From a virus: a stretch of DNA of 21,122 bases. The position numbers and the translations under genes were made by a program. The first letter of the stretch is position 1; every line of letters begins with the position of its first letter. The notes beneath the pieces were generated by a model. That model saw nothing but the letters and a program-made list of their open reading frames with translations, was not told the origin of the DNA and did not search any database. The stretch covers positions 1-21,122 of IMG/VR virus record IMGVR_UViG_3300020193_000166. One strand, 5' to 3'. This document shows positions 14,630 through 19,491 of the stretch, piece after piece.

Positions 14630-15781
14630 TCAAGCAAAAGAATATTTGCCTTGCCCCGTATTTCGTGTGTAGTGTTGCCAAGCGAGAGCGAGAGCCATTA
14701 CGCAATCATCGTGGAAGCCTTGCGGTGCTGAATATCTTACCCCAATAGCGGAGTATCGATATTCAAATATCTCTAACTCTTCTGTTATGTGTCCTTGTGG
14801 GAATGTTATCTTTCTTTGCTGAATAGCCGAAGCCAAACCCTCCATTAGTTGTTGTTTCGATGGCGAAGTAAATTTAAACCCACTTACAGGCAAACCCTCA
14901 CGCTGTAAATCTTCAAAAATTGGGTCTCCCGCACCCGTAGAATCAATTAAGGTAGGTACTTTCGGAAGGTTACCGATTACTTGTTTGGTTTGTTTCCAAT
15001 CCTTTTGAAACCTATCAAAGTAACACACCGAGCCATTCCTATCAAGACCTATGATTACTGTAAAATCCACCGCCTTCGCCAAATCAATCCCAAACGCAAT
15101 AGGAGGTTCAAGGCTGACCTCAAAAGTACATTGCTTGATATAACTACTTCCGAAAGGATTAGCCGCATTTTCGGCAGGATTAGCCATATATTCCTGCTCA
15201 AAGACAACATTCGGTAACTGCATCCTTGCATCATCAATCTCCGTTTTGTCTATAAATGGGTTATCGTAAGTAGTGAACTTAAAGGATTGCCAATCGGGTT
15301 CTCCAGATTTCAAGAACAAAGAGTAAAAGTAATTCTTACCCTTTGGTGTTGAGATGAATAAGGCTCTCCCCTTGTAGTCGGTTAAGGTAGGTCGGATTGA
15401 GTTTAACCATCCATTCTCAAGGTCGCTAATGTAAGAGGCTTCATCTATCACTCCGAAATGGAACTTCCTACCACGAAGGTTATCTAATCGTTCACCCGTA
15501 AAGAAATACAACGCACCACCATTGGGGAATTTAATTGATAGTTCTGATTTGTTAGCCTCAAAAGGTACGCACTTAATTAGTTGGTCAAAAAATACCCTCG
15601 CCAGTTGATAGGTAGGCGTTATGTAAAATACTTGTTTGCCTTGTAAGGCGTTAATTATTATTTCAATTTGTGAGAGTTCCGATTTCCCAAATCTTCTTCC
15701 GGCGAGTACAACTCTAAATCTTGATTGGCAATCAATAATTTCTTGTTGTTTAGTATGTAAAGTCGGGAGTTCAATTCTCAT
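14630..15781 (-). CDS. terL: Terminase large subunit (ATPase and nuclease)
   Basis: This 383-residue protein cuts concatemeric DNA and pumps it into the prohead through the portal. The ATPase part shows a Walker A motif GRRFGKSE (28-35), a Walker B motif GVIDEAS with Asp113-Glu114, and STPKG (144-148) as motif III. The nuclease part shows Asp232 in FGIDLAKAVDF, Asp279 in TLIDSTGAGDP and Asp358-Asp359 in FHDDCVMALALAW, an RNase H-like acidic set. The order matches TerL and all key residues are present. It is at the short end for the family (often 400-550), with no sign of truncation. The start overlaps the small-subunit stop as ATGA. Confidence 0.93.
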   Translation of the reverse strand: MRIELPTLHTKQQEIIDCQSRFRVVLAGRRFGKSELSQIEIIINALQGKQVFYITPTYQLARVFFDQLIKCVPFEANKSELSIKFPNGGALYFFTGERLDNLRGRKFHFGVIDEASYISDLENGWLNSIRPTLTDYKGRALFISTPKGKNYFYSLFLKSGEPDWQSFKFTTYDNPFIDKTEIDDARMQLPNVVFEQEYMANPAENAANPFGSSYIKQCTFEVSLEPPIAFGIDLAKAVDFTVIIGLDRNGSVCYFDRFQKDWKQTKQVIGNLPKVPTLIDSTGAGDPIFEDLQREGLPVSGFKFTSPSKQQLMEGLASAIQQRKITFPQGHITEELEIFEYRYSAIGVRYSAPQGFHDDCVMALALAWQHYTRNTGQGKYSFA

Positions 15782-16140
15782 AGAATGGTTTTCCCATTAA
15801 CAAACACCACTTCTATTTTGGAATCAGAACTAACCTGTTGTGTTTCCTTCGGCTTTCCATAAACCCTTGTTAATAAGGTTTCTACTGAATATAAACTACC
15901 TTTCTCTAAACTCTTCCTCATTGCGTTGGCTATTGTCTTTTCAAGTATTGTCGCTTTAGGATTATCCCAAACCTCTTTGAGTTCATCTAAATCCATTTGT
16001 AGCATTACTTGAATAGTGTCATTGATTTGAGAAAGGGCATATCCTTGCTCTCTTAAAAGCGTTACATACTTCTTCGGTCTGCCGTTAGGGTTTCTAACTT
16101 CACCCTTTTTTGCTGGTATCAGATTGTGATTGTTAGCCAT
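15778..16140 (-). CDS. terS: Terminase small subunit
   Basis: This 120-residue protein begins with a polar basic part holding RNPNGRPKK (16-24), a signature of small terminase-like proteins in Bacteroidota phages (I recall the label DUF5681). A helical middle (LSQINDTIQVMLQMDLDELK) follows, and a C-terminal helix leads to KIEVVFVNGKTIL. It would recognise the packaging site and guide the large subunit. The ATGA overlap with the large subunit gives coupling and supports the pairing. It starts 20 nt after the dioxygenase stop. Confidence 0.75.
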   Translation of the reverse strand: MANNHNLIPAKKGEVRNPNGRPKKYVTLLREQGYALSQINDTIQVMLQMDLDELKEVWDNPKATILEKTIANAMRKSLEKGSLYSVETLLTRVYGKPKETQQVSSDSKIEVVFVNGKTIL

Positions 16141-16160: not shown

Positions 16161-16934
16161 TTAATCCAATCCTTTGAATGCTTTTAATGGATAAAAAACT
16201 AAACTATTCCGATAGCCACCTTCTTTTAGCGGAACAATAGGTGTAACTCCGTGAACATTGCGCCACGCAGGATAAACAAGCATAGAATTATCCGAACTAT
16301 CTAATGTTGCACCATAATCTGGTACAGTAGTATTACCGCCTGTTGCATTTTCCTTTTTTGCAATTATTACATTTACACAACCCTCTAAATTTCCTGCGTC
16401 TCGATGAAAGGGTGCAGGTATATTGAAGTTTGAGATAGAACTTGTAAATAATCTTCCAAATCTCCATTTTGCTGGTATGTTTGTTTCAATAATGTTTTTT
16501 TGTCTTTCAAAGATATTCGGTGTTATTTCTCTTACAACCTCTTCGGCTTCCTTACAAGCCAATAACATTGCTTTGATAAATGTTTGTGCTGATTTAACCT
16601 GATGCACACTCGACATACTTGGATAAGGTCTACGCATATGTGGCTTCGGTGGGCAAGAACCAATGATAGTACTATATTGTTTAACTTCTGCAGAACTATC
16701 CATCAATCCGCTTGAACGCCGCATTTCGCTCTTTGGAACTCTATCAGATAACAATTCAGTATTTGCTATTTCAATGTATTGTTTTAGCTTACCTTGAATT
16801 TCTTTTATGTAAAAACCGATGGGTTCGCCATCAAAATAAAAAATGCTATCTTCTTTTACGTTAGGTTCTATGTGACCGCATATATCACCTATTTGTACGT
16901 TGTGTTGTTGCTGGATTAAATTTATTTTTTTCAT
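16161..16934 (-). CDS. Fe(II)/2-oxoglutarate dioxygenase, TET/JBP-like (putative DNA base oxidase)
   Basis: The C-terminal 100 residues form a double-stranded beta-helix core: PAPFHRDAG with His177 and Asp179 (HxD), GGNTTVP (199-205), NVHGVTP with His228, and GYRNSLVFY with Arg242. These would bind iron (His, Asp, His) and the 2-oxoglutarate carboxylate (Arg). An Arg at the last site is typical of TET/JBP and AlkB-type enzymes, while prolyl hydroxylases usually have Lys. The N-terminal part carries YSTIIGSCPPKP (82-93) and MRRPYPSMSS, which I read as a TET/JBP-style region. TET/JBP enzymes oxidise the methyl group of thymine or 5-methylcytosine in DNA. The start overlaps the GT-A gene as ATGA. 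Neighbours support base modification. The oxygenase fold is well supported; the DNA substrate is inferred. Confidence 0.72.
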   Translation of the reverse strand: MKKINLIQQQHNVQIGDICGHIEPNVKEDSIFYFDGEPIGFYIKEIQGKLKQYIEIANTELLSDRVPKSEMRRSSGLMDSSAEVKQYSTIIGSCPPKPHMRRPYPSMSSVHQVKSAQTFIKAMLLACKEAEEVVREITPNIFERQKNIIETNIPAKWRFGRLFTSSISNFNIPAPFHRDAGNLEGCVNVIIAKKENATGGNTTVPDYGATLDSSDNSMLVYPAWRNVHGVTPIVPLKEGGYRNSLVFYPLKAFKGLD

Positions 16935-17761
16935 ATCAACAGTTTTTTTCTCGCTTGTTCTATATTATTTTTACTGCCAAATATTTTTATATGGGTACCA
17001 TAATCCCATTTTGGTTTGTTAGCTATACGTACTAAAGGATTGTATTTGTATGCTAAATACAAACATTCTTTCCTTCGTAATTGTTTCCTTTCTTCGGTTG
17101 AACCAAACCCACCTTTTGTATATCTTCTAAATTCTGGTACAATCCAATTCAGAACCAAAACTTTATTATGGCGGATTAGATTTTCAGCAGTCCAAGCAAC
17201 ATCATCAATTAGTTGAGCGCGTATATCAAAATCATAAGTAGATTTTTTTACAAGCCAAAACCTGCCATCAGCCAAACCCCTTGTAGTATATCTATTTTTT
17301 AAATTTAACGGATTATCGTGTAACCCAAAACCTATCAAATGTATTCTGTTTTTTTCTGCAACCTCGATAAGTTGGGGGAAATACGAAAACATTTTTTTTA
17401 AAGATATAGCATCTTTCTTTTTTAACCTATATTGTGATTGATTATTAAAATTAATATCTATTTTTTGTGTTTTGCTTTTCAATAATTCCATAGGAACAGA
17501 TTTGATTTGTTTAAAATCATCACACAAAAAAACTGCCCATTCCCCAATATTCATCATATTCAAAGCGGTATTTCTTTGATACGCTAAACCCTTGTTATTA
17601 TTCGTAATTACAGGATTACCATAAATTGTTTTACCATTAACAAATTTTTCATAATCGCAATGTGTATGTATTAAAACATTATGCTCAATATCGTTATCAT
17701 ATAACGCTTTTGAAGTTGTCGCATCATTATATCTATTGTAAAAAAAAGTAAACACTTTCAT
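16931..17761 (-). CDS. GT-A glycosyltransferase, TET/JBP-associated type
   Basis: This 276-residue protein starts MKVFTFFYNRYNDATTSKAL, an N-terminal strand and turn typical of GT-A nucleotide-sugar enzymes. GLAYQRN (58-64) and FLCDDF (78-83, Asp81-Asp82 in place of DxD) would hold the sugar nucleotide and metal. A second acidic site, IDDVAWTAENL (185-195), may give the catalytic residue, and KGGFGSTEERKQLRR (216-230) is a basic loop. The pattern resembles the TET/JBP-associated glycosyltransferases reported from phages, relatives of the base J glucosyltransferase. It would glycosylate a hydroxymethylated base. Both ends overlap neighbours as ATGA, so the trio is translated together. By eye the gene is more A+T rich than the terminase, hinting at later acquisition. 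Substrate is inferred. Confidence 0.68.
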   Translation of the reverse strand: MKVFTFFYNRYNDATTSKALYDNDIEHNVLIHTHCDYEKFVNGKTIYGNPVITNNNKGLAYQRNTALNMMNIGEWAVFLCDDFKQIKSVPMELLKSKTQKIDINFNNQSQYRLKKKDAISLKKMFSYFPQLIEVAEKNRIHLIGFGLHDNPLNLKNRYTTRGLADGRFWLVKKSTYDFDIRAQLIDDVAWTAENLIRHNKVLVLNWIVPEFRRYTKGGFGSTEERKQLRRKECLYLAYKYNPLVRIANKPKWDYGTHIKIFGSKNNIEQARKKLLI

Positions 17762-18345
17762 AGTTTGTTCTTTTCCTCTTTCAATTTTTCAATAAGAAAA
17801 GCACCTATGTATAACTTTTTTTCTCGCCAAAACTTTACAAGCTCTTGTGCTTCTTCATAATGTTCGGGTTCAAATTCTATTTGTATCGCCTTACGAACTG
17901 AACCAGCCATAGAAGATAATTGTTCTTCAATATCAACTTCGTCTAAAACAGAATAATCTAATTCTCTTGTTACGGGTTCGAATACAGGCACATTTAACCC
18001 CCATTCGTTTAATAATTCACCATCCCACTCGTTCGCTAAAGAATCCCAATCCCATTCTCCGAATCCAACATTGTCCTTAATGATAAATTCTCTTTGTTGC
18101 TCTTCGGTTAGTTCACTTGCCTTAATGATTGGTATTTCTTTCAATCCCGCTTCTTTACAAGCTTTAAGTCGCATATTGCCACCAAGAACAATCATATCAT
18201 CATTTACCACAATAGGTCTTAACTCAAGCATTTTAGGAAACTCTTGAATTGACTTTACAAGTTTAGCAAACTTATCATCCTTAATTAATCTCGGATTGTT
18301 TGGGTTTGCTTTTACTTTACCGATTGAAATAAATTCTGCTTTCAT
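17758..18345 (-). CDS. ParB/Srx-fold protein
   Basis: This 195-residue protein has a ParB-like domain: NPNNPR (14-19), the helix KFAKLVKSIQEFPKM, ELRPIVVNDD and the signature VLGGNMRLKACKEAG (53-67). A second part carries EFIIKDNVGFGEWDWDSLAN (86-105) and a C-terminal helical segment (PEHYEEAQELVKFWREKK). In phages this domain often accompanies DNA methylases or other base-modifying enzymes; here no methylase is next to it. It may bind or locate DNA for the two downstream enzymes. It shares an ATGA overlap with the glycosyltransferase. The start follows the microprotein stop by 18 nt. The ParB fold is secure; the role is inferred. Confidence 0.8.
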   Translation of the reverse strand: MKAEFISIGKVKANPNNPRLIKDDKFAKLVKSIQEFPKMLELRPIVVNDDMIVLGGNMRLKACKEAGLKEIPIIKASELTEEQQREFIIKDNVGFGEWDWDSLANEWDGELLNEWGLNVPVFEPVTRELDYSVLDEVDIEEQLSSMAGSVRKAIQIEFEPEHYEEAQELVKFWREKKLYIGAFLIEKLKEEKNKL

Positions 18346-18363: not shown

Positions 18364-18483
18364 TCATCTTCCTTGCCCACGATAGTTTCGTTCCTTTCTA
18401 TTATGCTTATTAGTTCCCTTATTAGGTTTTCCTTTTCTTCGTTTTCCAAAAGATATATTTGCAATAGTTCCGGATTTAGCCAT
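18364..18483 (-). CDS. Small basic microprotein, 39 residues
   Basis: This short gene begins ATG at 18483, three bases after the glycosyltransferase stop, and ends TGA at 18364. The product starts MAKSGTIANISFGKRRKGKP and ends RKERNYRGQGR. More than a third of the residues are Lys or Arg, and none is Cys. The C-terminal YRGQGR is a motif I recall from tiny genes in related phages. The tight spacing and codon use make it a likely real gene, possibly a nucleic-acid-binding peptide. It would be missed by gene callers with a 60-codon limit. Function is unknown. Confidence 0.65.
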   Translation of the reverse strand: MAKSGTIANISFGKRRKGKPNKGTNKHNRKERNYRGQGR

Positions 18484-18486
18484 AAC

Positions 18487-19491
18487 TTAACTAACAGTTA
18501 TTTGATATAGTTGTTTTCTTTTTTCATTAACCTTAAAGAGATTGAAATTTTGAACTGCCCACTCAAATAACTCCAAACCCTTCTCCCTTCTATAAATAGA
18601 ATCTTCGGTAACTTTTTTAATCTCTTTGTACCAATCCCCTTGTTGATTAACTTGTATCATAGGAGAGTTTAAATAAGGCTCAATGTGACTACCGATAACG
18701 GGAATCTTTTTTGTTGCCGCTTCTAATAGCTTTAGGTTGGATTTCATTGCATTGAACTTCGTGGCTCTTAATGGGACAATAGAGCAATCGGCATCGTTAT
18801 AGAAGTTCATATACTCGGTAATAGGTAGGAATCTTCTGACATCTCCCAACTTTAAACCACAAGTAAAATTGGATACCATCCTTTGCCATATTGCCGATGA
18901 GCCTTCGCCAGAATCATCAAAGCCACATAGTTGAAAGTGTACTTTGCTTTTTAATAATGAATCGGAAGCTACTTTCTTAAACGGGAACTGGATAATCTTC
19001 AAATCTTGTTCGTGTGTAATTGAACCCGCATAGATGAATTTAATTTTTTCGCTTTTTTGTCTTACATCCGTATATTGGTCATTACCATACGGAAGAGCAT
19101 TCGGTAGGATAGCTACATTGGAGTTTATAGGTCTGATTTCATTCCATAGCTTTTCGTTGGTACAAGTTACTAAATCCGCTTCCCTTATGTGGTTGATGAT
19201 TTCTTGCGTAGGGTAAACGCTTTCTAATATGTGAGACTTATCAAGTATCCAATAATCATCAATATCACAAATGATTTTAAAGCCGTACTTCTTTTTCTTT
19301 TCCAATAAAGTTTCAAGTGATACTCCCACAATGAAACGATTAAATAATACAATGTCAAAATTTTCTTCTAATGCTTCATCGGTCATAGTATCGGTAAAGA
19401 AAGCATAGGTTTTCTCTAAATAGTAAATAGGTAGCATTAAGCGGTGATACCCAACACCAGAATTAGGAGCAGTTAATACAAGTATCCTCAT
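18487..19491 (-). CDS. GT-B glycosyltransferase
   Basis: This 334-residue protein starts MRILVLTAPNSGVGYHRLML, a first Rossmann-like strand followed by a Gly-rich loop. Residues 75-81 (CDIDDYW) form an acidic motif shared by a phage-associated glycosyltransferase group. The second domain starts near KFIYAGSITHEQD (151-163). KFNAMKSNLKLLEAA (245-259) and IPVIGSHIEPY (263-273) are typical of the GT4-like nucleotide-sugar region. Transfer of a sugar from a nucleotide-sugar donor is expected. It overlaps the preceding gene as ATGA and lies upstream of the ParB-led trio, so it could extend a sugar on modified bases. Alternatives are glycosylation of virion protein or host envelope. Fold call is good; acceptor is unknown. 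Confidence 0.72.
   Translation of the reverse strand: MRILVLTAPNSGVGYHRLMLPIYYLEKTYAFFTDTMTDEALEENFDIVLFNRFIVGVSLETLLEKKKKYGFKIICDIDDYWILDKSHILESVYPTQEIINHIREADLVTCTNEKLWNEIRPINSNVAILPNALPYGNDQYTDVRQKSEKIKFIYAGSITHEQDLKIIQFPFKKVASDSLLKSKVHFQLCGFDDSGEGSSAIWQRMVSNFTCGLKLGDVRRFLPITEYMNFYNDADCSIVPLRATKFNAMKSNLKLLEAATKKIPVIGSHIEPYLNSPMIQVNQQGDWYKEIKKVTEDSIYRREKGLELFEWAVQNFNLFKVNEKRKQLYQITVS

What the first reader, a model, noticed from the sequence alone, without database searches (positions are those of the whole stretch)
16161..18345. Candidate DNA base hypermodification cassette: ParB-like + GT-A glycosyltransferase + TET/JBP-like dioxygenase
Three genes are joined by two ATGA overlaps, just upstream of the terminase. 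The dioxygenase has a full Fe(II)/2-oxoglutarate set (His177, Asp179, His228, Arg242). The glycosyltransferase has GT-A features (GLAYQRN, CDDF, DDVAW). Phage TET/JBP enzymes paired with such transferases are known to make glycosylated hydroxymethyl bases. Together they could oxidise thymine or 5-methylcytosine in the phage genome and then add a sugar, protecting it from restriction. No cytosine methylase is visible here, so thymine (base J-like) is the simplest substrate. This could be a Bacteroidota-phage version with its own ParB-like partner.
Basis: partly seen in the sequence, partly recalled or inferred. Interest (0 to 1): 0.85.

Follow-up and report, generated by a model that had tools for sequence, protein, structure and literature searches.

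The report
Phage ParB–TET cassette with swappable gene
This phage carries a three-gene DNA-modifying unit in which a TET/JBP-like enzyme probably adds a hydroxyl group to thymine and a neighbouring enzyme then adds a sugar, and in closely related phages the sugar gene is replaced exactly by genes predicted to add a methyl group or an amino acid instead, so one common oxidising unit seems to feed many different chemical disguises of phage DNA.

Summary
Observation confirmed. Three minus-strand genes joined by two ATGA overlaps encode ParB-like (17758-18345), GT-A glycosyltransferase (16931-17761) and a TET/JBP-type dioxygenase (16161-16934), upstream of the terminase genes. The dioxygenase passes the Pfam Tet_JBP cut-off, and its model fits TET2/NgTET1 (Z about 19) better than FTO or AlkB. 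The GT is TAGT-like (TET-associated), though this copy scores below the Pfam cut-off.

Beyond the finding: ParB precedes TET in all 107 loci with enough upstream DNA, and the gene between them is exchangeable: GT-A, other putative GTs, an FkbM methyltransferase (commonest in my sample), kinase + amidotransferase + amino acid:DNA transferase (ADDT), or nothing. Window and two relatives share DNA on both sides of the slot with breaks at its edges. TETs up to 96% identical sit with different slot genes, including ADDT, a thymidine hypermodification enzyme. With no cytosine C5-methylase or thymidylate-synthase homologue in complete ParB-TET phages, thymine is the likely base and a glycosylated hydroxymethyluracil (base J-like) the likely product; inferred, not measured.

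ParB + TET + ADDT + kinase is already described as a putative thymidine hypermodification system. The swappable slot and methyl branch look new. New variant of a known kind.

The parts
17758..18345 (-). ParB-like protein (195 aa), ParB_N domain at residues 4-92; first gene of the unit
   Evidence: Pfam ParB_N 32.0 bits over cut-off 26.3; PHROGs of phage ParB and of ParB-DNA methyltransferase type; present in 107 of 107 testable TET loci
16931..17761 (-). GT-A fold glycosyltransferase (276 aa), TAGT-like; occupies the exchangeable slot
   Evidence: phrog_842 E 1.8e-4; TAGT E 0.074 for this copy, best 1e-6 among the 12 of 23 aligned members that match; model pLDDT 92.5 matches GT-A enzymes
16161..16934 (-). 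TET/JBP-like Fe(II)/2-oxoglutarate dioxygenase (257 aa); Fe ligands H177, D179, H228; 2OG-binding R242
   Evidence: Tet_JBP 35.5 bits over cut-off 34.9; model pLDDT 93.4, best PDB matches TET2 Z 19.0 and NgTET1 Z 18.8
17758..17761 (-). ATGA overlap, ParB stop with GT-A start
   Evidence: sequence
16931..16934 (-). ATGA overlap, GT-A stop with TET start
   Evidence: sequence
15778..16140 (-). DUF5681-like small protein, possible terminase small subunit; conserved next to TET in close relatives but not part of the chemistry
   Evidence: DUF5681 below cut-off; position between TET and terminase in relatives
18487..19491 (-). GT-B type glycosyltransferase upstream of the unit; possible second transferase, role unproven
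   Evidence: phrog_7162 E 1.8e-62; kept in close relatives but not at a fixed place

Best explanation
A post-replicative thymine hypermodification unit. The TET/JBP-like enzyme hydroxylates the 5-methyl of thymine in phage DNA to 5-hydroxymethyluracil; the GT-A enzyme then puts a sugar on that hydroxyl, giving a base J-like glycosyl-hydroxymethyluracil; the ParB-like protein binds DNA and probably brings the enzymes to their sites or along the DNA. The mark would shield the genome from host nucleases before packaging. Shown by sequence: gene order, translational overlaps, family and fold of the oxygenase and transferase, exchange of the middle gene among near-identical TET backgrounds. Inferred: thymine as substrate, the glycosylated product, the role of ParB, the protective purpose.
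For: TET identity. GT. GT-A always sits with TET: 28 of 29 GT-A loci have TET next to it, the other stops at the contig end. Thymine: TETs 93.0% identical overall and 97.8% in the core sit with GT-A (L094) or with kinase + GNAT + GATase + ADDT (L034), and 96.1% identical ones with FkbM (L024) or ADDT (L034); ADDT (PF18724) and P-loop kinase3 (PF18751) belong to thymidine hypermodification and recur with ParB-TET in actinophages; that ADDT lineage is beside TET in 76 of 80 loci, the other 4 having less than 1.2 kb upstream. No C5-MTase (PF00145) in seven complete phage genomes with ParB-TET, nor in Kozie, which has TET-ADDT, and no thymidylate synthase homologue (PF00303) in 27 records. By contrast Melnitz, which has TET without an annotated ParB beside it, has a HhaI-like C5-MTase directly before TET.
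Against: No biochemical data. Five of 24 IMG/VR records (the window's among the 24) carry a C5-MTase outside the cassette, and a host could supply 5mC. The contig is 21 kb, so the rest of this genome is unseen. Position 182 is Asn as in TET2 (N1387), whose known substrate is 5mC. The Leu at 250 in place of the 5mC-binding His of TET2 cannot be used as support, since C5-MTase-linked Melnitz also lacks that His. Phage TETs characterised so far act on 5mC (Burke 2021, from memory and as cited in PMC11404850). The window GT scores below the TAGT cut-off. Three large phages with TET-like genes but no adjacent ParB (S-CBWM1, Cr30, DLP6) also lack a C5-MTase, so absence of C5-MTase is not unique to the ParB type.
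Confidence: 0.7

Rival explanations
1. Cytosine pathway: TET oxidises 5-methylcytosine made by a host or distantly encoded phage C5-methylase, and the GT glycosylates 5hmC, as in the phage TET systems already characterised.
For: Characterised phage TETs act on 5mC (Burke 2021, cited in PMC11404850); 5 of 24 IMG/VR records have a C5-MTase elsewhere; N182 equals TET2 N1387; phrog_842, the best PHROG hit of the GT, is named for a 5hmC glucoside transferase.
Against: No C5-MTase in the ParB-TET cassettes examined, and none at all in seven complete ParB-TET phage genomes including P-HS2 and Nigel. Near-identical TETs sit with ADDT and kinase, which belong to the hydroxymethyluracil pathway.
Confidence: 0.17
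2. TET makes hydroxymethyluracil but the GT acts on something else, such as a capsid or tail protein or a host surface glycan.
For: GT-A folds act on many acceptors; the window also carries a GT-B gene.
Against: GT-A is coupled by ATGA to both ParB and TET, is always beside TET, and is replaced in the same slot by enzymes of DNA hypermodification.
Confidence: 0.08
3. The middle genes are independent cargo inserted at a recombination-prone site, with no shared pathway with TET.
For: Replacements are exact and frequent, as cargo exchange would be; some loci have no slot gene.
Against: Only group-transferring or DNA-modifying families were found in the slot; the FkbM family is beside TET in all 78 loci not cut by a contig end; the order varies (TET-FkbM in HTVC112P, TET-ADDT in actinophages and marine phages) but the association stays.
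Confidence: 0.05

Closest known systems
Putative thymidine hypermodification system of Rhodococcus phage Tonitrus (PMC11955845)
   Same: ParB-like gene and Tet-like oxygenase, predicted to modify thymine in DNA
   Different: Tonitrus uses aGPT-Pplase2/ADDT and a kinase downstream of TET; the window has a glycosyltransferase between ParB and TET; its TET is about 26% identical
Phage TET + C5-methylase + TET-associated glycosyltransferase systems (Iyer 2013, Burke 2021; from memory, papers not held)
   Same: TET/JBP oxygenase paired with a GT-A glycosyltransferase of the TAGT type
   Different: No C5-methylase; ParB instead; Melnitz-type neighbourhood differs
Base J pathway of kinetoplastids (JBP1/2 plus J glucosyltransferase; from memory)
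   Same: Predicted thymine hydroxylation in DNA followed by glycosylation
   Different: The 257-aa protein is little more than the oxygenase domain, with no recognised J-binding domain; ParB partner; relation of the GT to the J glucosyltransferase not tested
5-hmdU hypermodification of phages M6, ViI, phi W-14 (Lee 2018, 2022; from memory)
   Same: Further modification of hydroxymethyluracil in DNA; ADDT, kinase, FAD and GNAT enzymes seen in sister loci
   Different: There the hydroxyl is put on dUMP by a thymidylate synthase homologue; here none was found and a TET is present

Membership tests
TET/JBP dioxygenases (PF12851) | Profile match over curated cut-off | tested here: met
   35.5 bits against 34.9
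TET/JBP dioxygenases (PF12851) | HxD...H iron triad and 2OG arginine | tested here: met
   H177, D179, H228, R242 invariant in 34 sequences
TET/JBP dioxygenases (PF12851) | Closest solved folds are TET enzymes rather than other 2OG oxygenases | tested here: met
   TET2 19.0, NgTET1 18.8, CMD1 17.0, CcTet 16.9 against FTO 14.5, AlkBH3 13.9, AlkB 13.2
TET/JBP dioxygenases (PF12851) | Oxidation of the 5-methyl of thymine or 5mC in DNA | not testable with these tools
   needs enzyme assay
TET-associated glycosyltransferase TAGT (PF20691) | Profile match over curated cut-off | tested here: not met
   window copy 13.4 bits against 27.5; 12 of 23 aligned members match at E up to 0.1, best 1e-6
TET-associated glycosyltransferase TAGT (PF20691) | GT-A fold and adjacency to TET | tested here: met
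TET-C5-methylase cytosine hypermodification | C5-methylase linked to TET | tested here: not met
   none in the window or in seven complete ParB-TET phage genomes
Thymidine hypermodification by kinase and ADDT | 5hmU kinase and amino acid:DNA transferase present | tested here: not met
   none found beside ParB-TET in the window; present in sister loci whose TETs are up to 97.8% identical in the core to GT-linked TETs
Base J pathway | Glucosyl-hydroxymethyluracil in DNA | not testable with these tools
   needs LC-MS

The most novel reading that the evidence does not exclude
ParB-TET is a general phage chassis for post-replicative thymine hydroxylation with a plug-in decoration slot, so that closely related phages carry chemically different bases, including one not known to me from DNA: O-methylated hydroxymethyluracil (5-methoxymethyl-deoxyuridine) made by the FkbM methyltransferase, in 99 of 188 sampled loci and in cultured phages P-HS2 and HTVC112P.
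Probability: 0.4. Interest if true: 0.78.

Novelty: new variant of a known kind. Interest (0 to 1): 0.58.

Why it matters
If right, one conserved pair of genes lets phages change the chemical disguise of their DNA by swapping a single neighbouring gene, which could explain how closely related phages outrun modification-sensing host defences. It predicts specific new bases in cultured phages that can be checked by mass spectrometry, and offers TET-type thymine hydroxylases and transferases for labelling thymine in DNA.

Tried and rejected
Pocket residues as a test of base choice: TET2 H1904 / NgTET1 H297 aligns with L250, but C5-MTase-linked Melnitz TET lacks the His too and ParB-linked HTVC112P shares Melnitz's Asp at the N182 position, so this does not discriminate. 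Prolyl/asparaginyl or small-molecule oxygenase: not among the best fold matches; TET enzymes are on top with FTO and AlkB below. tRNA-guanine transglycosylase, as RefSeq and PHROGs label relatives: not supported; the PHROG label clashes with the Tet_JBP profile and fold. Nucleotide-level hydroxymethylation: no thymidylate synthase homologue of the ThyA family. Search of 84,980 prokaryote genomes gave only four relatives, with two degenerate patterns, so sensitivity was limited. Sequence search of solved structures found no relative of the GT. Key papers (Iyer 2013, Burke 2021, Lee 2018 and 2022) were not held; statements about them are from memory or from citing papers. The host of the window phage was not pursued.

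Full report
Observation. They lie upstream of a DUF5681-like gene and the terminase large subunit. The record is a 21,122-base virus fragment.

Oxygenase. Pfam gives Tet_JBP above cut-off. All four quoted active-site residues are invariant over 34 sequences that include mycobacteriophage relatives at 22-26% identity. A profile of these finds only TET2 and CMD1 among 177,635 PDB sequences, although only at E 0.02-0.3. The AlphaFold model (pLDDT 93.4) has TET2, NgTET1, CMD1 and CcTet on top (Z 16.6-19.0), clear of FTO (up to 14.5) and AlkB-type enzymes.

Transferase. The model (pLDDT 92.5) is a GT-A enzyme resembling GalNAc-transferases, cellulose synthase and TarP. This copy reaches TAGT only at E 0.074, but 12 of the 23 aligned members match it, best 1e-6, and other slot transferases (L189, L193) pass its cut-off. 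I call it TAGT-like, not a member.

Neighbourhood. IMG/VR holds at least 598 relatives of the TET. Of loci with at least 3.3 kb upstream, 107 of 107 have ParB on the same strand before TET. What lies between differs: FkbM methyltransferase in 99 of 188 loci, GT-A in 35 (plus 5 loci with other TAGT-type GT-A genes), kinase + glutamine amidotransferase + ADDT in 16 plus 3 with a GNAT, other putative glycosyltransferases in 4, nothing in 12. These counts are of sampled best matches with some contigs seen twice, not a census. On a tree of 75 TETs the slot changes state at least 21 times, against 35.5 for shuffled labels (weakly supported forks make this approximate).

Exact replacement. Window and L009 (FkbM) share DNA at 80-82% identity over ParB and over TET to terminase, and not over the transferase; the homology stops within a few bases of the slot gene's ends. 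L007, with a different putative transferase, shows the same, with edges 7-14 bases off.

Which base. TETs that are 96.1% identical sit with FkbM (L024) or ADDT (L034), and TETs 93.0% identical (97.8% in the core) with ADDT (L034) or GT-A (L094). So the same oxygenase very probably makes the same product for all. ADDT and its kinase belong to hydroxymethyluracil pathways (established knowledge: Lee 2018, 2022), and 5hmdU DNA kinase is shown to phosphorylate hmU in DNA (PMC7653180). In actinophages ADDT again lies with TET: in Tonitrus and LittleMunchkin with ParB and kinase, in Kozie with an FAD oxidoreductase and a P-loop protein. In 40 marine-type loci the order is ParB-TET-GATase-ADDT, with a P-loop kinase-like gene following in the four I read. 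No C5-methylase lies in seven complete ParB-TET phage genomes or in Kozie, and no ThyA-type thymidylate synthase homologue in 27 records. In Melnitz, where no ParB is annotated next to TET, a HhaI-like methylase directly precedes it. Pocket residues did not settle the matter.

ParB. Its role is unknown. ParBc proteins are also found by cytosine carboxymethyl hypermodification genes and fused to DNA methyltransferases, function unknown (PMC12783734). A DNA-bound recruiter or sliding clamp is my inference.

Prior art. PMC11955845 already describes ParB + Tet-like + aGPT-Pplase2 + 5hmU kinase as a possible thymidine hypermodification system. I found no paper linking FkbM to phage TET or reporting methoxymethyl-uracil in phage DNA, in open-access text only. 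The exchangeable slot and methyl branch are therefore possibly new; the general principle is not.

Noticed in passing
phrog_6059; NC_020847.1 CPAG_00035 (L002:5959-6744), NC_011044.1 Nigel_2 (L004:776-1744) and others: The TET/JBP family is labelled queuine tRNA-ribosyltransferase in PHROGs and RefSeq, and as DnaJ or SNF2 protein in other phages; the ParB of MED4-184 is labelled DNA methylase. These look like propagated misannotations.
   Followed up: partly
L006:3971-4600, L009:495-1115, L085:4797-5420, L007:1-348: Close relatives have an extra GT2-like gene (Pfam Glycos_transf_2 for the L009 copy) overlapping the start of ParB; the window lacks it and has a GT-B gene further upstream.
   Followed up: partly
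L218:2649-5993 (Arthrobacter phage Lilmac1015): ParB, TET, TAGT-like transferase and a PIG-L type de-N-acetylase nearly in a row, suggesting an amino sugar on the DNA base.
   Followed up: partly
window 18364-18483, minus strand: A 39-aa very basic ORF between the GT-B gene and ParB; not seen before ParB in the relatives looked at, apart from the near-identical L005.
   Followed up: no
L034:3879-4517, L353:3597-4016: GNAT acetyltransferases inside ADDT-type cassettes, which could acylate the attached amino acid.
   Followed up: no
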